Origin: Mycolicibacterium sp. HK-90 | GTDB taxonomy: Bacteria > Actinomycetota > Actinomycetes > Mycobacteriales > Mycobacteriaceae | Assembly (NCBI RefSeq): GCF_030486405.1 | Contig: NZ_CP129613.1 | Coordinates: forward strand, 3,658,001-3,722,000 | Length of the DNA: 64,000 nt | Direction of reading: 5' to 3' | Part shown: positions 4,074 to 44,339 of the stretch, one piece after another | Layout of the letters: each line of letters opens with the position of its first letter | Numbering within the stretch: the first letter of the stretch is position 1 | Position numbers and translations under genes: made by a program | Notes under the pieces: model-generated | Database searches by the model: none | What the model was told of the DNA's origin: nothing | Seen by the model: the letters and a program-made list of their open reading frames with translations, nothing else

Positions 4074-6053
<1,980 letters not shown>

Positions 6054-35865: not shown

Positions 35866-36309
35866 TCAGCTGGTGTGAACGATCAGCACGTCGGTCGTGG
35901 ACCGGCGTGCCACGTTCGCGGGCACCGAGCCCAGCAGCCGACCGGCAATGGTGCTCAGCCCGACGTTGCCGACCACCAGCAGGTCTGCCTTGACGTCCTC
36001 GGCCAGCTCGACGAGGGCGTCAACCGGGGCGCCGACGATCGGACGCTCCTCGATGTCAGTGGCACCGGCGGCCTTCGCCCGGTCGGTCGCCTCGCGCAGG
36101 ATGGCGTAGATCGGCGCGTTGCCCGCCATCTTGTAGCCCTCCTCCTTGAGCACATCAGCGGCACGCTGGTCTTCGCTCTGGGGGAAGTATGCGGTTGCCA
36201 CGATCAGCTTGGCATTCGAGCCGGCGGCAATCTGACCGGCGCGGTCGACTGCACGCAACGACGAATCAGATCCGTCCGTGCCGACCACCACGGTTCGATA
36301 CGCGCTCAT
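35866..36309 (-). CDS. Universal stress protein (Rv1636-like)
   Basis: This 147-residue single-domain USP starts YRTVVVGTDGSDSSLRAVDR and ends with the nucleotide loop VVGNVGLSTIAG-x8-S, then TTDVLIVH, the G-2x-G-9x-G(S/T) signature. The M. tuberculosis counterpart Rv1636 and its M. smegmatis homologue bind cAMP, so this protein may buffer cAMP made by cyclases such as the one at 5169. ATG at 36309 is chosen (GGAGGG 5 nt upstream). It lies between the MBL hydrolase and the glycosyltransferase as in the remembered reference order. Confidence 0.92.
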   Translation of the reverse strand: MSAYRTVVVGTDGSDSSLRAVDRAGQIAAGSNAKLIVATAYFPQSEDQRAADVLKEEGYKMAGNAPIYAILREATDRAKAAGATDIEERPIVGAPVDALVELAEDVKADLLVVGNVGLSTIAGRLLGSVPANVARRSTTDVLIVHTS

Positions 36310-36662
36310 CAATACCCTCCCACTGTCAGTTGCAACGCCACCCGAGACAGTAACCCGTCGCCCGCTGACCAGGGGCGCGAATCACGACACCCGCACGGAC
36401 AGCCGACGACTGGCTCCGGTTTCGCCTCCCGGGACGGCGAATTGGCACTGATGTTAACTCTCCGGTGTGCAAATTCGGTGCCGACCGTGACGTAGTCGAC
36501 GCCTGCCGAATCCGGGTTGCGGGCAGGACGATTCACCGCCCGGGGTGATCCAGCTCATCCGCGCGGCCGCGAACCGGCGGCAATAGTGCTGCCGGAGAAA
36601 GCGAATCGGAGTGACTCGGGTTACTGTTTGCCATCGCTTGAGGGGAAGAAACGGTCGCTGAC
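36310..36662. other. 353-bp intergenic region, no gene seen
   Basis: The region separates the divergent USP and glycosyltransferase genes. It must hold both promoters, but I see no clear -10/-35 pair or dyad. It is less GC-rich around 36440-36480 (TGATGTTAAC) than its neighbours. No convincing open frame, RNA gene or repeat is visible. Confidence 0.5.
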
Positions 36663-38201
36663 GTGGACGTATCGCTGAATGAGCGCGCCAGGGGCGCGGG
36701 CCTGCGCATCGATCGTGGTGTCCGCATCGATGCGCTGGCGGTGGCGGCCTTCGCCGTCGTGCTCTCCGCCGCGGGAGCGGCCCGCCCGTCGCTGTGGTTC
36801 GACGAGGCCGCCACCATCTCGGCTGCGACCCGAACGGTCCCACAACTCTGGGAGCTGATCGGCCACATCGACGCCGTACACGGGCTCTATTACCTCGGCA
36901 TGCACGGCTGGTTCACCGTCTTCCCGGCGACCGAGTTCTGGTCGAGGTTCTCCAGCTGCCTGGCCGTCGGCGGCGCGGCGGGCGGCGTGGTGGTTCTCGG
37001 CAGACAGTTCGGCACTCGGACGGTATCGGTCTGTGCGGGAGTTCTTTTCGCGATCCTGCCAAGGATCACCTGGGCAGGCATCGAGGCCCGGTCGTACTCG
37101 TGGTCGACGCTGGCCGCGGTGTGGCTGACCGTTCTGCTCGTCGCGGCCATCCGGCGCGACCGCACTGCACTGTGGGTGTCCTACGGTGCGCTGCTGGTCT
37201 TTTCGACAGTGCTGAACATCTATGTGGTGCTGATGGTGATCCCCCACGCCGTAGCCGTCGCACTGCTCTGCACCCGCCGTCGCACCCGCGCGAGGTGGAC
37301 CTGGGCGGCGACCGCTGCGGTGGCCGCAGTGGTGCCGTTCGTGTTGTGGTGTCGTTCCCAGAGCTTCCAGGTCGGGTGGATCTCACCGCTTGGATGGCAC
37401 ACCTTCGCCGAGGTCGCCGTGGAGCAGTATTTCGACCACAGTGTGGCCTTCGCGGTGTTGGCGGCAGTGGCACTCGGCGCGCCCCTGGTGGTCAGGCGGC
37501 TTCGGCCCACCGATGTCGATACGCGGCGGCTCATGGTGATCGCCGCGGTGTGGGTGGTGGCCCCGACCGCGGTCCTGTTGGTGTATTCGGCTGTCGCGCA
37601 ACCGCTTTATTACCCTCGATACCTCAGCTTCACCACCCCGGCCATCGCGTTGCTGCTCGCTGTCTGCGTGGTGGCGCTCGCCCGAAGCAGAGAATGGATC
37701 ACCGCCGCACTGGCAGCCTTCGCCGTCGCCGCGACACCGAACTACGTCACCGTGCAACGCGGCCCGTACGCCAAGGAAGGCATGGATTTCAGCCAGGTCG
37801 CCGATGTCATCTCATCGCACTCCTCCCCCGGCGACTGCCTGATCTTCGACAACACCACGTCGTGGAAACCGGGCCCGATCCGCCCGATCACCGCCGCCCG
37901 CCCCTCCGCCTATGCCCACCTCGTCGACCCCGGCCGGGGAACCCGGGCACCGCAGCGAAATCGGTTGTGGGACGCGCACCTCGGAATCTGGGGCGTCGCC
38001 GACGAGGTACGCCGGTGCACGGTGTTGTGGACGGTGTCCGAACGCGATCCATCCGTGCCGGACCGGCAGAGCGGCGCCGGGTTGGAGCCCGGCCCGCGAC
38101 TGGGCCGGGCCCCGGCCTACCGGGTACCCGAGGACATGGGCTTCCACATCAGCGAACGCTGGCAGTTCAACTTCGCTCAGGTGGTCAAGTCCACCCGCTG
38201 A
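36663..38201 (+). CDS. GT-C-type polyprenyl-phosphate-dependent glycosyltransferase (Rv1635c-like)
   Basis: The 512-residue integral membrane protein has about ten helices and the GT-C motif in its first extracytoplasmic loop (SLWFDEAATISAA, with the catalytic Asp-Glu). The C-terminal ~130 residues are a soluble extracytoplasmic tail. Such enzymes transfer mannose or arabinose from decaprenyl phosphate to cell-wall glycans. The syntenic M. tuberculosis gene Rv1635c (capA) adds the first mannose cap on lipoarabinomannan. The GTG at 36663 has only a distant GAGGGGAAG, so the start is uncertain. The mannosyl role is inferred from position and fold. Confidence 0.78.
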   Translation: MDVSLNERARGAGLRIDRGVRIDALAVAAFAVVLSAAGAARPSLWFDEAATISAATRTVPQLWELIGHIDAVHGLYYLGMHGWFTVFPATEFWSRFSSCLAVGGAAGGVVVLGRQFGTRTVSVCAGVLFAILPRITWAGIEARSYSWSTLAAVWLTVLLVAAIRRDRTALWVSYGALLVFSTVLNIYVVLMVIPHAVAVALLCTRRRTRARWTWAATAAVAAVVPFVLWCRSQSFQVGWISPLGWHTFAEVAVEQYFDHSVAFAVLAAVALGAPLVVRRLRPTDVDTRRLMVIAAVWVVAPTAVLLVYSAVAQPLYYPRYLSFTTPAIALLLAVCVVALARSREWITAALAAFAVAATPNYVTVQRGPYAKEGMDFSQVADVISSHSSPGDCLIFDNTTSWKPGPIRPITAARPSAYAHLVDPGRGTRAPQRNRLWDAHLGIWGVADEVRRCTVLWTVSERDPSVPDRQSGAGLEPGPRLGRAPAYRVPEDMGFHISERWQFNFAQVVKSTR

Positions 38202-38212
38202 GACCCGGGGGG

Positions 38213-39061
38213 TCAGTCGCGACGGTCCCGGCCGAAGTACATCTCCTGGCTCACCGAGCACACGAGTTGCCCGGCCCGGTTGTACACCGTCGCATTCGCC
38301 AGACCTCGTCCGTTGACGCCGCTGGGTGAAACCTGGTCGGACAACACCCAATCCGTCAGATCGGCGGGGCGCTGGAACCAGATTGCAAGGTCGATCAACG
38401 CCGAGAAAACCGTGACCTGGGTGGCACGCCGCATCGTCACCGTCGTGTCCAGCACCGCAGTGCCCGAGAAGTAGGTCAGCAGACAGCTGTTGACGATCGG
38501 ATCGTCGGTGACCGGTTCGGCAGGGCGCCACCACATCCGGGTGCGCTCCGGCGGTTCCGGCAGATCGATCGCCAGCCGCGGGGGCGGGTCGATGTAACGC
38601 CGCTCGATCCACTGCGGGCGCACCCAATACCCGTGGGCCTCGTCGGCGAACGCCTGCAGCTGTTCCTCGACCGGGGGCAGCGTTTCGGGGTCGGGGACCG
38701 CGGGGCGGGGTTGCTGGTAATCCGCGGCCTCCATGGGAACGCTGAACGAGACGAGCGCTTCCAGCAACACTTCATCGCCCTGCCGGCCGATGACCCGGCG
38801 GGTGGACAGCGATCCACCGTCGCGCAGGTTGGTCACCTCCATCTGCACCGGGTAACGGGCGTCACCGGCCCGCAGCAGGTAGACGTGCAGGCTGTGGGGC
38901 AATCGGCCCGGGACGGTGCGACTGGCGGCCATCAGCGCCTGGGCGGAGATATGCCCACCCACGATGTGATGGCTGGGGTTGTCCCGCTGCTCGGCGACGA
39001 AGATGCCGTCACCCGACTCCGTCAGGTCGAGCGTGGACAGGACGTCGGCTAACTGCAGCAT
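38213..39061 (-). CDS. Acyl-CoA thioesterase II (TesB-like)
   Basis: The 282-residue protein is a double hotdog-fold thioesterase: HIVGGHISAQALMAASRTV in the first hotdog and DQVSPSGVNGRGLANATVYN with VCSVSQEMYFG in the second, the TesB-type layout. It hydrolyses acyl-CoA to free acid and CoA; chain-length preference is unknown. ATG at 39061 is used; a GTG at 39067, two codons upstream, sits 6 nt after AATAAT and may be the leaderless start. The N-terminal region abuts the acquired AT-rich island on the other strand. Confidence 0.85.
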   Translation of the reverse strand: MLQLADVLSTLDLTESGDGIFVAEQRDNPSHHIVGGHISAQALMAASRTVPGRLPHSLHVYLLRAGDARYPVQMEVTNLRDGGSLSTRRVIGRQGDEVLLEALVSFSVPMEAADYQQPRPAVPDPETLPPVEEQLQAFADEAHGYWVRPQWIERRYIDPPPRLAIDLPEPPERTRMWWRPAEPVTDDPIVNSCLLTYFSGTAVLDTTVTMRRATQVTVFSALIDLAIWFQRPADLTDWVLSDQVSPSGVNGRGLANATVYNRAGQLVCSVSQEMYFGRDRRD

Positions 39062-39272
39062 GGGCACGGCAGCATTATTCGGGGTCTGCCAGCACACATC
39101 GCCCCAGGGGTGCCGACCTCCGTTACCGAACCGATTGCGGGCGGGCCGGACCGAAACCGAGAACGAAGGCGTCTCAGGAAAGCCAGTTGCGGCAGCTTGT
39201 CCCGTTCGCGCGCCTAATGCTGACCAGATTGCGACGCAGTTACTATCTAGCCTCAAAGCGTCTCGATTCGGA

Positions 39273-40454
39273 TTGGAAGCCCAGTTGAAGCTTGGTAAGT
39301 CTGACCCTGACCTCGAAACGATAGTCAGCCGGATCAAGGGCAAAGAGCTGGATTTGCAGCCAAGTTTTCAACGTGGCGACGTATGGGACGCGAAGCGGCG
39401 CCAACGACTGATCGACACCATACTTCGCGGATGGTATGTGCCAGCTGTGCACCTCGTCATCGACACCGAGGGCCACGAACTCGTACTCGACGGCCAACAA
39501 CGCCTGACAACAATTCGTGACTTCTTTGACGACGAATTGAAAATCGACGGGAAAATTCAGCCATCCGATTCTCACATAGAAGAACTCGACGGCCTATACT
39601 ATTCGCAACTTCCTGACAACATTCGACGTAATGTGAACCGCTTCACTATTCAAACCATCACCCTTACTGATTATCGCCCACAAGAACCAAACGAACTTTT
39701 TTTCCGACTAAATCAGTCATATAATCTCACGCCGCCAGAAAAGCGAAATGCCCTTCATGGGCCTGCTCGTGATCAGATCAAGGACCTCGTCGAGCAGCTG
39801 AAATCTAACGGCCTACTTCGCCCTGATCGAATCGGATTTGCCAATGGACGCCTGGCCTACGACGATATAGTGGCGCGGGCTTGCGTTAGTGTGCAGATCG
39901 GCAACATGCGCCGACACATCAATAACAACGTAGTGGAGAAATTCTACCGCGAAAACCAGTTCTCCAGTGACACGATTGATAGTATTTCGGATGCAGGACG
40001 TGAACTACTCTTACAGATAAGGGCGTGCCCGGAAGAGCGCGTGAGATTCAACAAAGGAACTCTGCAAACATGGCTGATCTACTGCTATTGGGCGTCTCTC
40101 GATTCGGCCATCCCCCCTGATCTCTTGTGGCGCTTTGAGACTGATCGTCTTATGCTGAAGCGAGGGAATACAGGAAGTTCAGCGCGTCACGGGTCGCCAG
40201 TTACGGAAATATTGCGCATCTACGATGACCGCGCGTCCTACAGAGTCACGGACGTCACTTCCGTACTCGCGCGCGATTTGGCGATCCACCTGTTCTCAAT
40301 CGAGAATTTCCGAACGCGCGAGCGTGACGACTCAGGCCATCTACTTGAAATTTTGCGTGAAACTCCCTCGGAGATGCGTCAGGCGGAGTTCTTCTCGTTC
40401 ATCGAAAACTCAAGTTGGGGCAATCCGATTGCTTCCGGGCGCGGCTTGTGGTGA
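39273..40454 (+). CDS. DUF262-domain protein of a candidate defence island
   Basis: The 393-residue protein carries an N-terminal DUF262 (ParB/Srx-like, GmrS-type) domain: LDLQPSFQRGDVWD, WYVPAVHLVID and the signature DGQQRLTTIRDFF (73-80 for the Asp-Gly-Gln-Gln-Arg motif). DUF262 domains bind or hydrolyse NTPs in type IV restriction enzymes such as GmrSD. No C-terminal HNH/DUF1524 nuclease domain is evident, so nuclease function could lie in the partner. The start is uncertain: no ATG or GTG lies near the domain, and TTG 39273 is the best in-frame choice (TTG 39285 also possible). The stop overlaps the next gene by 4 nt. Base composition is clearly AT-richer than the neighbours, indicating transfer. 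Confidence 0.8.
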   Translation: MEAQLKLGKSDPDLETIVSRIKGKELDLQPSFQRGDVWDAKRRQRLIDTILRGWYVPAVHLVIDTEGHELVLDGQQRLTTIRDFFDDELKIDGKIQPSDSHIEELDGLYYSQLPDNIRRNVNRFTIQTITLTDYRPQEPNELFFRLNQSYNLTPPEKRNALHGPARDQIKDLVEQLKSNGLLRPDRIGFANGRLAYDDIVARACVSVQIGNMRRHINNNVVEKFYRENQFSSDTIDSISDAGRELLLQIRACPEERVRFNKGTLQTWLIYCYWASLDSAIPPDLLWRFETDRLMLKRGNTGSSARHGSPVTEILRIYDDRASYRVTDVTSVLARDLAIHLFSIENFRTRERDDSGHLLEILRETPSEMRQAEFFSFIENSSWGNPIASGRGLW

Positions 40455-41785
40455 GAAACGCGGAGTATGAGCGTGCATTTTCTAAAATGCAGACCCTCAG
40501 CTCGAAGGTAGACGCCGACATTCGGTCGCCGATTGACGATGTGAAGATCGACATTTCTCAACCTTGCATTATTATCGGCGGCAAGAATGGCGCTGGAAAG
40601 TCGCGTTTGCTTCGCTCAATTTGCGACGAAGACGGTGTCGCAGGCATCTATCTGGATCTGCACCACCTAATTGAGCAGGCTCTGATGATACTACGCTCAC
40701 GAACCGACTTTGACGCAATGACCGACGAATACGACGCCATGAAGCTCAGCGATGACACCGTCACAGCCATTCAGCAGATTGTCGGCCGAACATACTCAGC
40801 GATTGATTGGTTCTCGGTCGAAGTGGAGTCAGCCGAGAATGATGTTGCAGAGAAGTTCAAGTGGGGTGGCGACCAATCCCTTTTCCCATACTTTCGCGTA
40901 ACCTACAATGGGACGGAATATACTTCCCTTGAAATGGGCCTGGGCGAATTTAGCGTTCACTTTCTATTGTGGATACTTGAACAACACCGAGAATCAAGAT
41001 CTGTAACATTACTACTTGATGAACCGGACGCCTACTTGCCGCCCGTGGGTGTTTCTATATTATTGTATTACCTGGTCCATCTTTGCGAAAAGAAGAAGTG
41101 GAAGGTTATACTGTCCACGCATTCAGAGGAAATGATACGGATTGCGCGAAGGAGTAAGCTGTTCACCCTGCTCCGCACCGATGAAAGTGGCAAGATTAGC
41201 GCTTCGAACAGCTTAGAGAATCCTCATGCTGGCGACAGCTTACTAAGCTTTAAGGGAATGCGTCGTGTCTTATTCTGCGAGGACGAATCAGCGTACGTCC
41301 TAACCCGCGTACTTCTGCAGGCAGATGACCTCAGCTATATTCGCGAGACAACTATCGTGTGGGGAAACGGCCATGGATATCTACGCGCCCTAGAGGCCGC
41401 TATGCCGAGACCACCCCAGCCTGTTATCGAATTTGCTTATGTTTTTGATGGCGATCAGCGCAAAGATTTTGAACCTTCCAACGGGTCGCGATGGCCGGCG
41501 GTGTTTCTTCCCACCAATGACGATCCGGATACTCTATTCGTGAATCTTGCCTCCCACCTAGATGAGTTAGCCACTGCGCTTAGCACTCCAGCCAACCAAC
41601 TGCAGGAATTCCTCGACACACTCAATGGGAAAGAGCCACACGATTGGGTGAACGACCTCTGTGTCCAGTTTGGCCGTCAACAGACATTGGCATCTCTTGC
41701 GGCACTGTGGCGTGAACTCAATGCTGAGGAAGCAACACAATTCATTCGGGACGTGCACACTGTGCTTCCACCAACGAGCGATTGA
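40451..41785 (+). CDS. OLD-like AAA/ABC ATPase with TOPRIM-type C-terminus
   Basis: The 444-residue protein has an ABC/SMC-type ATPase head: Walker A GGKNGAGKS (43-51), Walker B VTLLLDEPDAYLPP and the H-loop LSTHSEEMI. After it comes a TOPRIM-like block with the acidic residues in RVLFCEDESA and FDGDQRK, the OLD-family ATPase-nuclease pattern seen in several phage-defence proteins. GTG 40451 overlaps the DUF262 stop (GTGA), so the two are translationally coupled. Codon use is AT-rich (a 60-base sample at 40981-41040 has 27 G+C, versus 42 in 42121-42180). No known system name is assigned. Confidence 0.83.
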   Translation: MRNAEYERAFSKMQTLSSKVDADIRSPIDDVKIDISQPCIIIGGKNGAGKSRLLRSICDEDGVAGIYLDLHHLIEQALMILRSRTDFDAMTDEYDAMKLSDDTVTAIQQIVGRTYSAIDWFSVEVESAENDVAEKFKWGGDQSLFPYFRVTYNGTEYTSLEMGLGEFSVHFLLWILEQHRESRSVTLLLDEPDAYLPPVGVSILLYYLVHLCEKKKWKVILSTHSEEMIRIARRSKLFTLLRTDESGKISASNSLENPHAGDSLLSFKGMRRVLFCEDESAYVLTRVLLQADDLSYIRETTIVWGNGHGYLRALEAAMPRPPQPVIEFAYVFDGDQRKDFEPSNGSRWPAVFLPTNDDPDTLFVNLASHLDELATALSTPANQLQEFLDTLNGKEPHDWVNDLCVQFGRQQTLASLAALWRELNAEEATQFIRDVHTVLPPTSD

Positions 41786-41836
41786 TGACGTAGCGCGACG
41801 ACAACTAATCGGCACGCAGAATTCTAGCGCCTGGCG

Positions 41837-41876
41837 TTGTTCCGCTGCCGGGCCCTCTGATTCGGCAGCGGAACAA
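41837..41876. terminator. 13-bp perfect hairpin between ATPase and tRNA genes
   Basis: Arms 41837-41849 and 41864-41876 are perfectly complementary over 13 bp, with a 14-nt loop. It lies 12 bp beyond the tRNA 3' end and could end both the tRNA transcript and the convergent ATPase operon. Confidence 0.7.
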
Positions 41877-41887
41877 GCAACCATCCG

Positions 41888-41958
41888 AGCGAGTGACGGG
41901 ATTCGAACCCGTGTAATCGGCTTTGCAGGCCGGTTCCTAGCCACTCAGACACACCCGC
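41888..41958 (-). tRNA. tRNA-Cys (anticodon GCA)
   Basis: The minus strand folds as a tRNA: a 7-bp acceptor stem (GCGGGTG/CACTCGC, one G-U), a D-arm with GG, an anticodon loop CTGCAAA (anticodon GCA), a variable loop and a T-arm ACGGG-TTCGAAT-CCCGT. The discriminator base is U, a Cys identity element. The anticodon stem has a C-A mismatch at its outer pair (27-43). CCA is not encoded. It borders the AT-rich island, and tRNA genes are frequent integration targets. Confidence 0.93.
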
Positions 41959-42019
41959 ATCGGTTGGCTACTGTGCCAGCCACGCGGGTGCGGGCCCATG
42001 GTTTCGATCGCAATGATCG

Positions 42020-42790
42020 CTATTCGTCGGCGTCATCCCCCACCGGTCGGCCGACCACCGCCCCGCCCTGCGGCCACCCGGCCGGCGAGTCCTCCCACGG
42101 TTCCTGCCTGCCGTAGGGCGTGAGGTCCAGGAAGGGGTAGCCCACCGCGCTGTGGTCGAGGCCGCGGGCGAAGGTCGAGTAGGTGTGGAAGACGTCGTCG
42201 CCCCGGCGCAGGAACACGCTGGCGCCGGGCCAGTCGCCACGGAGGTCCTCATCGGTGAAGCCGTCGGCCCGCAACTCGTCGGCGGTCTTGTAGTTGTATT
42301 CGATCGGCGCACGGGCCGGGTCGAGCGTCACGTGGTAGTCGTAGGTGAAGTCGCCGTCGCGCGACGAGTACCAGGGGAACGTCCAGCCGTGCTGGTCCCG
42401 GTAGGCCGCGATGCTGGCATACGGTGCCCGGGACACGCAGGCGAACGTGACGTCCTTGCAGTGCAACAGGTCTCGATCCCCTTCGGTGAAGGTCAGGTCG
42501 GCTGCAGCCGTGCAACTCGGGCAGCCCTGATCGATCGCGTCCATCCACATGAAGTGGTGGATGTAGAGCTGGCTGCGGCCCTCGAACATGTCCTGCAAGC
42601 GGACTTCGCCGTCGGGTCCCTCGAAGATGTAGTCCTTTTCCACCTTCACCATCGGCAGCCGACGACGTTGGGCGTTGACCGCATCGCGCAGGTGCGTCAC
42701 CTCGCGTTCGGCGGCCAGTAGCTTCTTGCGTGCCTCGAGCCACTCGTCGCGGGTGACAACGTCTGGGTAGGCATTGAGTGTCAGCGGCAT
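42020..42790 (-). CDS. DUF899-family thioredoxin-fold protein
   Basis: The 256-residue protein has DUF899 hallmarks: MPLTLNAYPDVVTRDEWLEA, FEGPDGEVRLQDMFEGRSQL, HHFMWMDAIDQGCPSCTAAA with a CPSC redox motif, and FPWYSSRDGDFTYD. The fold is thioredoxin-like, and a role in redox or detoxification is plausible but untested. GAGGAG lies 6 nt before the ATG at 42790. The gene is upstream of the tRNA on the same strand, with 61 bp between them. Confidence 0.88.
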   Translation of the reverse strand: MPLTLNAYPDVVTRDEWLEARKKLLAAEREVTHLRDAVNAQRRRLPMVKVEKDYIFEGPDGEVRLQDMFEGRSQLYIHHFMWMDAIDQGCPSCTAAADLTFTEGDRDLLHCKDVTFACVSRAPYASIAAYRDQHGWTFPWYSSRDGDFTYDYHVTLDPARAPIEYNYKTADELRADGFTDEDLRGDWPGASVFLRRGDDVFHTYSTFARGLDHSAVGYPFLDLTPYGRQEPWEDSPAGWPQGGAVVGRPVGDDADE

Positions 42791-42878
42791 CGAATCACTC
42801 CTCGTGTTGGTCCTATACGAGTGAGACCTGGGCTGCGGGCGAAACTCATCGCGCACGAGCGCGCGAAAAATCCTGGTG

Positions 42879-44294
42879 CTATGTGGCGTGTTGGGCAGCG
42901 GACACGCGCGCTCGCGGTGCAGAACGGAAGGTGGCGAGGGCCCCGAGCGCGGCCAGCACCGCGAATGCCGCGAACAGCCCGCGCGCTGCCACCGCATCGC
43001 CGGCGACGCTGAGGTTGACGACGACACCCGCCAACCCCGCACCCAAGGCACCGGAGATCAATTGCACGGTGTTGATCGCAGCTGCCGCGGCCGGGCCCTC
43101 AGCCGGATCGTCGACACTGCCCATCGCCCACGCGGACAGATGCGGCCAGGCGATACCGATGCCGGCACCGCTGAGCACCAGCGCCACCGCCCACGTCGCG
43201 ACCAACCAGGGCGCCATCCCGTCCCGGATCAGCAGCGCCCCGGCCGCCAGGCCGGTCGCCATCACGAGCGGCGCGAACGCCACCGACCGCGCGATCACCC
43301 GCCGATTCTGCAGCGATGCGCTGACGATCTCCCCCGCCGTCCAGCCGACCGACAACACCGAGCCGAAGAACCCGGCTGCCACCGGGGTCAGATGGGCGAG
43401 CCGTTGACCGAACAGCGGCACGTACATCACGACCATGGTGGCGGCCATCAGCACGCCGAGGCTCAGGTAGATCCACTTGAGCGGGCCGGGCCCGAAAGTG
43501 CTGGGCGGCAGGACCGATGCGCGGGTCCGACGGTCGACGAACACGAACCCGACCGCCAGCGCCACACCCAACACGAGCAGCGCCGCAGTCGCCCGCAGAT
43601 CGTGCGGTATCCCGGCCACACTGATCGCCATCGCCGCAGCCCCCAGCAGCGTCAGTGACGCCACCGGAATGCCCGGGGGCGCGGTCGACGTGGTGGCCCG
43701 GGCCGGTAATGCGACGGGTACCAGTGCCGCCATCGCGACGGCCAGGACCACCAGGATCCCGAAGGCCCACCGCCAGTGCCCGAACTGCGCGAACAGCCCG
43801 CCCGCCGCGGGGCCGATCACGGTGCCGACGCCCCACATCGCCGAAACGAGGGCAGATGCCTTGGTCCACAAGGTATTCGGCAGCGCCGTGTTGATCACCG
43901 CGTAGCCGAGACCGGCCAGCATCCCGCCCGCGAAACCCTGCACCGTGCGCCCGGCGAGCATCACCTCCATACTCGGGGCCAGCGCGCAGAGCAAGCTCCC
44001 GGCACCGAACACCGTGAGCCCCAAGAGATATGCCCGTCGCGGTCCCAACCGCATCAACGTCGAATGAACGGTGGTGGCCGCCACGACCGAGGCAACCAGG
44101 TACACCGTCGTCACCCAGGCGTAGAACCGGTGCCCACCGATCTCGGCCACCGCGCTGGGCAGCAGGCTGATGGTCAGGAACTCGTTGGTGGCGTACAGCA
44201 GCACACCGCCGGCCAACACGGTGGATGCGCCCAGGTGCCGGGCGCCCAGCAGGTGCCGCCAGGTGCCGGCATCCGGCGTCACGGTATCGGTCAC
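42879..44294 (-). CDS. MFS efflux transporter (Rv1634-like)
   Basis: The 471-residue protein has about 14 predicted membrane helices. Its MFS features include YAWVTTVYLVASVVAAT, LGPRRAYLLGLTVFGAGSL (motif A-like loop) and GRTVQGFAGGMLAGLGY (motif B-like Arg). It fits the drug:H+ antiporter 2 class. The position beside uvrB matches Rv1634, annotated as a possible drug-efflux membrane protein. GTG at 44294 lies 7 nt after TAGCGT, a leaderless arrangement. The substrate is unknown. It reads in the same direction as uvrB but has its own promoter box. Confidence 0.88.
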   Translation of the reverse strand: MTDTVTPDAGTWRHLLGARHLGASTVLAGGVLLYATNEFLTISLLPSAVAEIGGHRFYAWVTTVYLVASVVAATTVHSTLMRLGPRRAYLLGLTVFGAGSLLCALAPSMEVMLAGRTVQGFAGGMLAGLGYAVINTALPNTLWTKASALVSAMWGVGTVIGPAAGGLFAQFGHWRWAFGILVVLAVAMAALVPVALPARATTSTAPPGIPVASLTLLGAAAMAISVAGIPHDLRATAALLVLGVALAVGFVFVDRRTRASVLPPSTFGPGPLKWIYLSLGVLMAATMVVMYVPLFGQRLAHLTPVAAGFFGSVLSVGWTAGEIVSASLQNRRVIARSVAFAPLVMATGLAAGALLIRDGMAPWLVATWAVALVLSGAGIGIAWPHLSAWAMGSVDDPAEGPAAAAAINTVQLISGALGAGLAGVVVNLSVAGDAVAARGLFAAFAVLAALGALATFRSAPRARVSAAQHAT

Positions 44295-44339
44295 GTCGAT
44301 GACGCTAAAGGCTGAACCGCCGTTGAGGTCAAGCCCGGC

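What the first reader, a model, noticed from the sequence alone, without database searches (positions are those of the whole stretch)
39273..41785. AT-rich two-gene island: DUF262 protein coupled to an OLD-like ATPase/TOPRIM protein
The pair is translationally coupled, compositionally foreign (27/60 G+C versus 42/60 in a nearby host sample) and beside a tRNA. DUF262 occurs in type IV restriction, and OLD-type ATPase-nucleases are common phage-defence effectors. A DUF262 protein without an evident HNH domain, joined to a separate ATPase with intact Walker A/B, H-loop and TOPRIM acidic residues, does not match a system I can name.
Basis: partly seen in the sequence, partly recalled or inferred. 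Interest (0 to 1): 0.85.

Follow-up and report, generated by a model that had tools for sequence, protein, structure and literature searches.

The report
Two-gene module accompanying a restriction system
Two foreign-looking genes in a bacterial chromosome, a nucleotide-switch-type protein and an ATPase with nuclease-like motifs, probably form a small defence module: in 10 of 12 genomes examined their relatives sit beside one particular DNA-cutting-and-marking (restriction) system, and in this genome that system is present too, but half a million bases away.

Summary
Genes A (DUF262, 389 aa) and B (OLD-like ABC ATPase with TOPRIM-like motifs, 444 aa) overlap by 4 bp. They lie in a 2.8-kb, 52% G+C insert beside tRNA-Cys in a 68% G+C window; one relative has 35 bp there. 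A has no HNH-like motif; key Walker, H-loop and acidic residues of B are identical in 89 of 89 sequences aligned.

It is not Menshen as tested: A matches NsnA over its N-terminal half only, B scores poorly to NsnB, and the one NsnC model run on the genome found nothing. Gene content does not fit Gabija, PARIS or GmrSD.

New finding: the pair accompanies a type II restriction-modification system, an Eco57I-like methyltransferase (M) and an endonuclease-like protein (R), perhaps the MSMEG_3213-3214 family. Ten of 12 genomes have M-R beside A-B (one inferred across a contig break; R overlaps A in two). The other two, this genome included, have M-R elsewhere and apparently acquired A-B separately. 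A and B co-diverge; A and M do not.

Most likely A-B is a portable second-line arm working with the mark or failure of M-R: A a switch-sensor, B the nuclease. Function is inferred. New variant of a known kind.

The parts
39082..41881 (.). Inserted segment (2.8 kb, 52.2% G+C) holding A and B, between the tesB-like gene and tRNA-Cys; no integrase-like ORF seen
   Evidence: Window 36000-39081 and 41882-44334 align to relative G021 (L115), which has 35 bp there; no att-like direct repeat found; G+C
39275..39279 (+). GGAAG, likely ribosome-binding site of A
   Evidence: 5 nt before TTG 39285
39285..40454 (+). Gene A: DUF262/GmrSD_N (ParB-like NTPase-type) protein, 389 aa, no HNH-like motif
39489..39503 (+). 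DGQQR motif of A (residues 69-73), the DUF262 nucleotide-pocket motif
   Evidence: Invariant in 83 rows, position; motif role from PMC10952713 (passages)
40451..41785 (+). Gene B: OLD-like ABC ATPase with C-terminal TOPRIM-like motifs, 444 aa; GTGA overlap with A
40580..40603 (+). Walker A of B (residues 44-51, GKNGAGKS)
   Evidence: G44, G49, K50 in 89 of 89; S51 in 71 of 89
41003..41029 (+). Walker B of B (residues 185-193, VTLLLDEPD)
   Evidence: D190, E191 in 89 of 89
41120..41122 (+). H-loop histidine 224 of B
   Evidence: 89 of 89
41279..41281 (+). E277 of B, candidate TOPRIM glutamate
   Evidence: 89 of 89; aligned by hhalign with a conserved glutamate of six larger ABC proteins
41447..41455 (+). 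D333-G-D335 of B, candidate TOPRIM DxD
   Evidence: Both D in 89 of 89; motif reading by eye
41837..41876 (+). 14-bp perfect inverted repeat downstream of B, possible terminator
   Evidence: I3
41887..41958 (-). tRNA-Cys; its 3' end faces the insert

Best explanation
A and B form one two-protein defence module that works as a second-line arm of a type II restriction-modification system (M, an Eco57I-like adenine methyltransferase; R, a PD-(D/E)XK-like endonuclease). A, a DUF262 NTPase-type protein without its own nuclease domain, is the sensor or switch. It reads the state of incoming DNA with respect to M's mark, or the failure of restriction, and after NTP turnover licenses B. B, an ABC ATPase joined to a TOPRIM-like nuclease, cuts DNA (or tRNA) of the invader or of the infected cell. 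The module can be inherited as part of one M-R-A-B cluster, or acquired alone by a genome that already has M-R, as here. Shown by sequence: gene anatomy, conserved residues, insertion, linkage to M-R in cis or presence in trans, A-B co-divergence. Inferred: defence, the sensor/effector split, B's nuclease activity and target, dependence on M's mark or R's failure.
For: Of 12 A-B genomes, 10 have M-R beside A-B. Six are co-directional M-R-A-B (L004, L006, L007, L008, L010; L002/G138 inferred across a contig break) and four convergent (L003, L009, L011, L058). R overlaps A by 11 bp in L006 and 4 bp in L007. The other two (window genome; G193) have M-R elsewhere; their M proteins are 86% identical but A only 54% and B 45%, which suggests separate gains of A-B. 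Background: M at E<=1e-100 in 79 of 396 genus genomes (counted by hand; 173 of 396 at E<=1e-30) and M at E<=1e-60 in 4 of 74 phylum genomes, own included. 8 of 120 listed R homologues share exact contig lengths with A/B hits, offset-control mean 0.9, maximum 4; the other 112 do not, though all three lists are cut at 120. A and B identities correlate (r=0.64 over 11 taxa, 1 of 2000 shuffles as high). Precedents: in SspE, recognition of a DNA mark triggers GTP hydrolysis that licenses a nuclease (PMC13251355, abstract); DUF262 described as likely modification sensor, and GrwAB as a two-gene system one of whose DUF262 proteins lacks the nuclease domain (PMC12137116, passages); OLD proteins as defence nucleases (PMC10568477, passages); PrrC and PARIS as second lines (PMC9122126, passages).
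Against: A and M identities do not correlate (r=-0.07; 1187 of 2000 shuffles reach it), so no lasting physical partnership of A with M is implied. M-R is common without neighbouring A-B: the 30 nearest genus M loci (own and G193 among them) all have R, one cut by a contig end, and none has A-B within about 1.5 kb. True B was found in only 3 of 396 genus genomes. With M in 20% of the genus, both trans carriers having it has a chance near 4%: weak. Not every M of that 79 need have R: G172's (59% identical) has none detected. PARIS, an OLD-type relative, does not need a restriction system to act (PMC9122126, passages). Defence genes cluster, so linkage could be partly passive. TOPRIM is a motif-level call: Pfam's OLD-like_TOPRIM is not reached in B, the proteins of the supporting alignment have no Pfam TOPRIM match where scanned (4 of 6), and two other comparisons stopped before that region. 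No structure model could be made.
Confidence: 0.5

Rival explanations
1. A-B is an independent defence system that merely sits in the same defence islands as M-R; the link is hitchhiking without functional dependence.
For: A and M identities are uncorrelated; the R subfamily differs in L009 and L058; A-B has no M-R beside it in the window genome and G193; gene order varies.
Against: The same M family occurs in all 12 genomes, not a random mix of defence genes; R-A overlaps in two loci. Setting aside frames antisense to M, R or A (clusters of 7, 6 and 4 loci), the next recurring family is an integrase-like one in 4 of 12 (one member checked).
Confidence: 0.3
2. A-B is a guard that physically watches R or M and triggers abortive infection when a phage inhibits restriction, like PrrC with EcoprrI (overlaps in part with the best explanation).
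For: Overlapping R-A in two loci; B is an OLD-type ABC protein, and PrrC and PARIS are precedents (PMC9122126, passages).
Against: No A-M co-divergence; R is a distant subfamily in two loci while A-B stays, unexpected for a direct R guard; PARIS itself does not guard a restriction system (same passages).
Confidence: 0.12
3. A-B is a Menshen variant (NsnA plus an NsnB/NsnC-like fusion).
For: A's best PADLOC match is NsnA (1.4e-32); profile comparison aligns A's N-terminal half with NsnA (97% probability); a review says Menshen pairs DUF262 with a predicted OLD nuclease (PMC10952713).
Against: A three-gene Menshen locus scores 403/336/236 bits (NsnA/B/C); A scores 111 over its N-terminal half, B 34 to NsnB, and NsnC model PDLC03879 finds nothing in the genome (four other NsnC models seen were not run on the genome).
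Confidence: 0.06
4. The pair is not defensive: a toxin-antitoxin-like or DNA-repair module.
For: No phenotype of a member was seen in the paper searches (listings capped).
Against: Rare, patchy, foreign composition, in an insertion hotspot beside a tRNA, next to restriction genes in relatives.
Confidence: 0.07

Closest known systems
Menshen (NsnABC)
   Same: DUF262 protein (NsnA) encoded just before an ABC ATPase (L054); A resembles NsnA across the DUF262 domain
   Different: Three genes with a DUF3696-type NsnB and NsnC; here two genes, ABC with TOPRIM-like C-terminus, linked to a type II R-M
OLD-family nucleases: class 1, Gabija GajA (class 2), retron type I-B (class 3), PARIS (class 4)
   Same: ABC ATPase, probably with TOPRIM; B's best PADLOC hit is ATPase-Toprim_I-B (2.2e-17; that this model is the retron I-B effector is recalled)
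   Different: Classes are defined by genetic context (PMC10568477, passages); the partner here is DUF262 (plus M-R), not a helicase, reverse transcriptase or separate AriB
GmrSD / BrxU / SspE
   Same: DUF262 with DGQQR; NTP-regulated proteins that act on or read DNA modification
   Different: Their nuclease is a DUF1524/HNH domain; A shows none and the presumed nuclease is a separate ABC protein
GrwAB and TgvAB of Vibrio cholerae
   Same: Two-gene systems in which one DUF262 protein lacks the nuclease domain and needs a partner (PMC12137116, passages)
   Different: The partner carries DUF262-DUF1524, not an ABC ATPase; sequences not compared here
MSMEG_3213-MSMEG_3214 (MamA and its restriction endonuclease) of M. 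smegmatis
   Same: Probably the same M-R family: M directly followed by R, in mycobacteria (inferred from arrangement; sequences not compared)
   Different: Described as a two-gene R-M (PMC7526240, parts 1-2 of 3 read); no A-B mentioned in those parts
PrrC-EcoprrI
   Same: Second-line effector sensing inhibition of a restriction system (PMC9122126, passage)
   Different: PrrC is an anticodon nuclease of a type I system without DUF262 (composition recalled)

Membership tests
Menshen | NsnA full-length family match | tested here: not met
   111 bits, residues 5-205 of 389, against 403 bits over residues 22-403 of 410 for a true NsnA
Menshen | NsnB (DUF3696-type ABC ATPase) | tested here: not met
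   B scores 33.7 bits against 336; no DUF3696 among Pfam matches of B (E<=1) or of the 89 aligned members (E<=0.01)
Menshen | NsnC present | tested here: not met
   Model PDLC03879 finds nothing at E<=1 in the whole genome; other NsnC models were not run on the genome
Gabija | Adjacent UvrD-like GajB helicase | tested here: not met
   In the window B is followed by tRNA-Cys and an opposite-strand DUF899-like ORF (by eye); no helicase model was run; apart from M, R and antisense frames no family recurs in more than 4 of 12 loci
PARIS | Separate AriA ATPase and AriB TOPRIM genes | tested here: not met
   ATPase and TOPRIM-like motifs lie in one 444-aa protein; fused AriAB exists (PMC10568477, passage), B scores 40 bits to that model
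OLD-family nuclease (broad) | ABC ATPase with Walker A, Walker B, H-loop | tested here: met
   Invariant in 89 of 89; best solved relative by sequence is an OLD endonuclease, 6p74, over residues 148-261 (E 2.4e-7)
OLD-family nuclease (broad) | C-terminal TOPRIM with E and DxD | tested here: inconclusive
   E277, D333, D335 in 89 of 89; E277 aligned to a conserved E of six larger ABC proteins, of which the four scanned have no Pfam TOPRIM match; OLD-like_TOPRIM not reached in B; comparisons 110, 111 ended earlier
GmrSD-type type IV restriction | DUF262 domain | tested here: met
   PF03235 E 3.8e-22, DGQQR invariant in 83 rows
GmrSD-type type IV restriction | DUF1524/HNH nuclease | tested here: not met
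   No Pfam match in A's C-terminal half above cut-off, no HNH-like pattern
R-M-linked second-line module | Linked M-R in the same genome | tested here: met
   12 of 12 genomes, 10 in cis (1 inferred) and 2 in trans
R-M-linked second-line module | Activity depends on M or R | not testable with these tools
   Needs phage or plasmid assays

The most novel reading that the evidence does not exclude
A-B is a portable upgrade that plugs into an existing type II restriction-modification system: the DUF262 protein reads the methylation state set by a chromosomal methyltransferase encoded elsewhere and licenses a separate OLD-type nuclease, so a restriction system gains a second effector by horizontal gain of two genes in trans. 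This would be a further genetic context of OLD nucleases and a split, type II-coupled counterpart of SspE.
Probability: 0.3. Interest if true: 0.8.

Novelty: new variant of a known kind. Interest (0 to 1): 0.58.

Why it matters
Type II restriction systems are usually seen as self-sufficient two-gene units. If a mobile sensor-nuclease pair depends on the mark or failure of a resident type II system, restriction has a modular second layer that annotation misses: no R protein run matched Pfam (5 run, one of them partial) or NCBIfam (3 run), one of 4 had a weak PADLOC match, and A-B matches only partial PADLOC models. It would also bear on what DUF262 proteins without a nuclease domain do, left to future work in PMC10952713 (passages), and could be tested in the background of the genetically supported MSMEG_3213-3214 system.

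Tried and rejected
Menshen membership: tested with a three-gene locus (L054) and not met. Phage or plasmid origin: B has no match in the phage or plasmid collections; A has weak matches (under 60% identity, none covering 80% of the query) in 97 plasmid and 198 phage records; IMG/VR gave 5 weak ATPase matches for B and none for A. Integrase or att repeats: none seen at the insert; an integrase-like cluster lies near 4 of 12 loci (one member checked by Pfam).

Site avoidance of CTCGAG, the predicted M-R target: in the window 23 seen, 45 expected, third most depleted of 36 palindromes scored. The control contigs (from G002, G172, G213, G319) show the same (14 seen, 23 expected), but G213 has M-R and G002 and G172 have an M homologue, so the control cannot decide. 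Not used.

A-M mirror-tree: negative. A first version used a wrong-frame row for G193's M; superseded, also not significant. TOPRIM by profile: E277 aligned in one comparison, not reached in two. R and A against solved structures: only chance-level matches.

Rows dropped: L012-L020 (9 of 19 loci, short ATPase matches at 27-40%); 15 of 18 genus genomes (partial matches at 24-35%); L058 left out of the A-B correlation because its B is interrupted. Alignments A3 and A4 used 82 and 88 of the 120 listed homologues.

After the filing check I looked up Krishnan et al. 2020 (not held), read passages of three papers for an earlier mention and found none there, and rechecked positions and G+C.
Full report
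WHAT IS THERE. The window lies in a 6.49-Mb single-contig genome at G000:C1:3658001-3722000. Gene A (39285-40454, +) encodes a 389-aa DUF262/GmrSD_N protein, gene B (40451-41785, +) a 444-aa OLD-like ABC ATPase with TOPRIM-like motifs near its C-terminus. The two overlap by 4 bp. Most aligned homologues start MKLxKSD and MRRAE or similar, so A more likely starts at TTG 39285 than at 39273. G+C is 51.1% for the pair against 67.9% for the rest of the window, and the pair is also poorer in G+C than its surroundings in all 11 other loci compared.

INSERTION. In relative G021 the flanks are collinear and 35 bp stand where the window has 2.8 kb (39082-41881; 52.2% G+C). The right edge is about 5 bp from the 3' end of tRNA-Cys. 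Relative G020 has a different insert of about 1.1 kb at the same place, so the site is a hotspot. No integrase-like ORF and no flanking direct repeat were seen.

CATALYTIC RESIDUES. In B, Walker A G44/G49/K50, Walker B D190/E191, the H-loop H224 and the acidic E277, D333 and D335 are identical in 89 of 89 aligned sequences. A profile comparison places E277 on a conserved glutamate of six larger ABC proteins, which carry a similar E...DxD pattern by eye but no Pfam TOPRIM match in the four scanned. Two further comparisons ended before that region, and Pfam's OLD-like_TOPRIM model is not reached in B. TOPRIM is thus likely by motif, not proven. In A the DGQQR motif is invariant in the 83-row alignment and no HNH-like pattern was found.

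DISTRIBUTION. True B relatives (E<1e-100) were found in 3 of 396 genus genomes (18 of 396 at E<=0.001), 2 of 394 class genomes (E<=1e-40; at most 4 candidates scored per genome, so a lower bound) and 1 of 396 phylum genomes, the window's own (query P0082, same cap). The scan of one genome per species gave 10 loci at 39-54% identity, two of which are the genus genomes G138 and G193. The protein database gave 204 B hits and 816 A hits. The pair is rare and patchy.

THE NEIGHBOURS. Clustering of all ORFs of at least 90 aa in 12 loci (L002-L011, L058 and 22 kb of the window) gave A and B in 12 of 12, an endonuclease-like family R in 10 and an adenine methyltransferase M in 9. Clusters in 7, 6 and 4 loci are frames antisense to M, A or R; an integrase-like cluster occurs in 4. 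M of L004 and L011 matches M_Eco57I_C and N6_Mtase; M of the own genome matches a PADLOC type II methyltransferase model at 1098 bits. R has no Pfam match (5 proteins, one partial) and no NCBIfam match (3 proteins), and one weak PADLOC match among 4 proteins. It conserves D146, S161, K163 and K171 across 10 sequences, which I read as PD-(D/E)XK-like. R in L009 and L058 is a distant subfamily (76% to each other; best match to the rest E 1e-9 over 167 residues). For G138, M and the first part of R end contig C20 and the rest of R begins the A-B contig, so I infer M in cis there too: 10 of 12.

IN TRANS. The own genome has M at C1:3131592-3133199 and R at 3133201-3134172, each 55% identical to the Nocardioides cassette proteins and 563 kb from A-B. 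G193 likewise has M-R, split over contig ends, away from A-B. The M proteins of these two genomes are 86% identical while A is 54% and B 45% identical, which suggests separate gains of A-B. M at E<=1e-100 occurs in 79 of 396 genus genomes (counted by hand; 173 at E<=1e-30). The 30 nearest, own and G193 included, all have R beside M and none has A-B within about 1.5 kb (35 loci examined, R in 31 including one genome seen twice; the four without R have M at 36-59% identity, and one of these lies at a contig end). In the phylum sample M occurs in 4 of 74 genomes at E<=1e-60, own included.

WHAT M-R IS. M directly followed by R, near a hisF-like gene (by eye), resembles MSMEG_3213-MSMEG_3214 of M. 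smegmatis. There, depletion of the methyltransferase stops growth unless the endonuclease gene is deleted, and CTCGAG is predicted but unproven as target (PMC7526240, parts 1-2 of 3; CRISPRi support in PMC7647400, passages). Orthology is inferred from arrangement, not from sequence comparison.

CO-EVOLUTION. Pairwise identities of A and B correlate over 11 taxa (r=0.64; 1 of 2000 shuffles as high); A and M over 12 taxa do not (r=-0.07), nor over the 10 cis taxa (r=-0.06). A and B therefore behave as one unit, and the unit seems to be repeatedly recombined with M-R. This argues against a fixed protein complex with M and fits a shared mark, a shared trigger, or passive island linkage.

MECHANISM. 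Known DUF262 proteins use nucleotide turnover as a switch: in SspE, recognition of the modification triggers GTP hydrolysis, which licenses an HNH nuclease (PMC13251355, abstract). Two-gene systems exist in which a DUF262 protein without a nuclease domain works with a partner (GrwAB; PMC12137116, passages). OLD proteins supply effectors in Gabija and retrons (PMC10568477, passages), and OLD-ABC modules are proposed as back-up effectors beside BREX (PMC12839542, passages). Joining these, A is the switch and B the effector, and M-R supplies the self mark or the first line. Only anatomy, conservation and linkage are shown; the rest is inference at about 50%. Against a strict guard role, PARIS acts without any restriction system in the cell (PMC9122126, passages).

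COMPARISON. Menshen was tested with a three-gene locus found here and not met. Gabija and PARIS fail on gene content; GmrSD/BrxU/SspE fail on the nuclease domain. Literature searches with DUF262, TOPRIM, OLD, Menshen and restriction terms (listings capped, e.g. 15 of 38) showed no paper describing this four-gene arrangement, judged from listings and from passages of the papers named here and of PMC3710099 and PMC10853773. Two key papers, on Menshen polymorphism and on ABC-ATPase conflict systems, are not held, so prior mention cannot be excluded.

VERDICT. A real, complete, apparently horizontally acquired two-gene module with an unexpected and testable link to a type II restriction system: new variant of a known kind.

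Noticed in passing
L116 about 4193-5307 (relative G020): A different insert of about 1.1 kb, with a small membrane-protein ORF (HdeD-like by eye), occupies the same tRNA-Cys site: an insertion hotspot.
   Followed up: partly
L062:11198-12205 and homologues: The endonuclease family R has 2210 database hits (query R of L006), including Burkholderia-type bacteria, yet no Pfam or NCBIfam match in the members run and only one weak PADLOC match.
   Followed up: partly
L062:12219-13217 (-): A transposase-like gene (by eye) lies directly downstream of R in the own genome.
   Followed up: no
L054:5550-8842: A three-gene Menshen locus in another actinobacterium (G449), used as yardstick.
   Followed up: yes
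L058:9914-11771: B of G907 is interrupted by a stop and about 0.5 kb of extra sequence.
   Followed up: no
L012:7113-10982: A larger OLD-like ABC ATPase gene lies next to an oppositely oriented gene resembling full GmrSD with an HNH part (by eye), a possible parallel DUF262/ABC pairing in another phylum.
   Followed up: no
L006:9394-11880 and L058:6272-8686: A second, larger OLD-like ATPase family (sub-threshold OLD-like_TOPRIM match in L006) stands near the cassette in two of 12 loci.
   Followed up: no
L005:8016-9734: B of G193 has an open C-terminal extension of roughly 130 residues beyond its relatives (572 aa).
   Followed up: no
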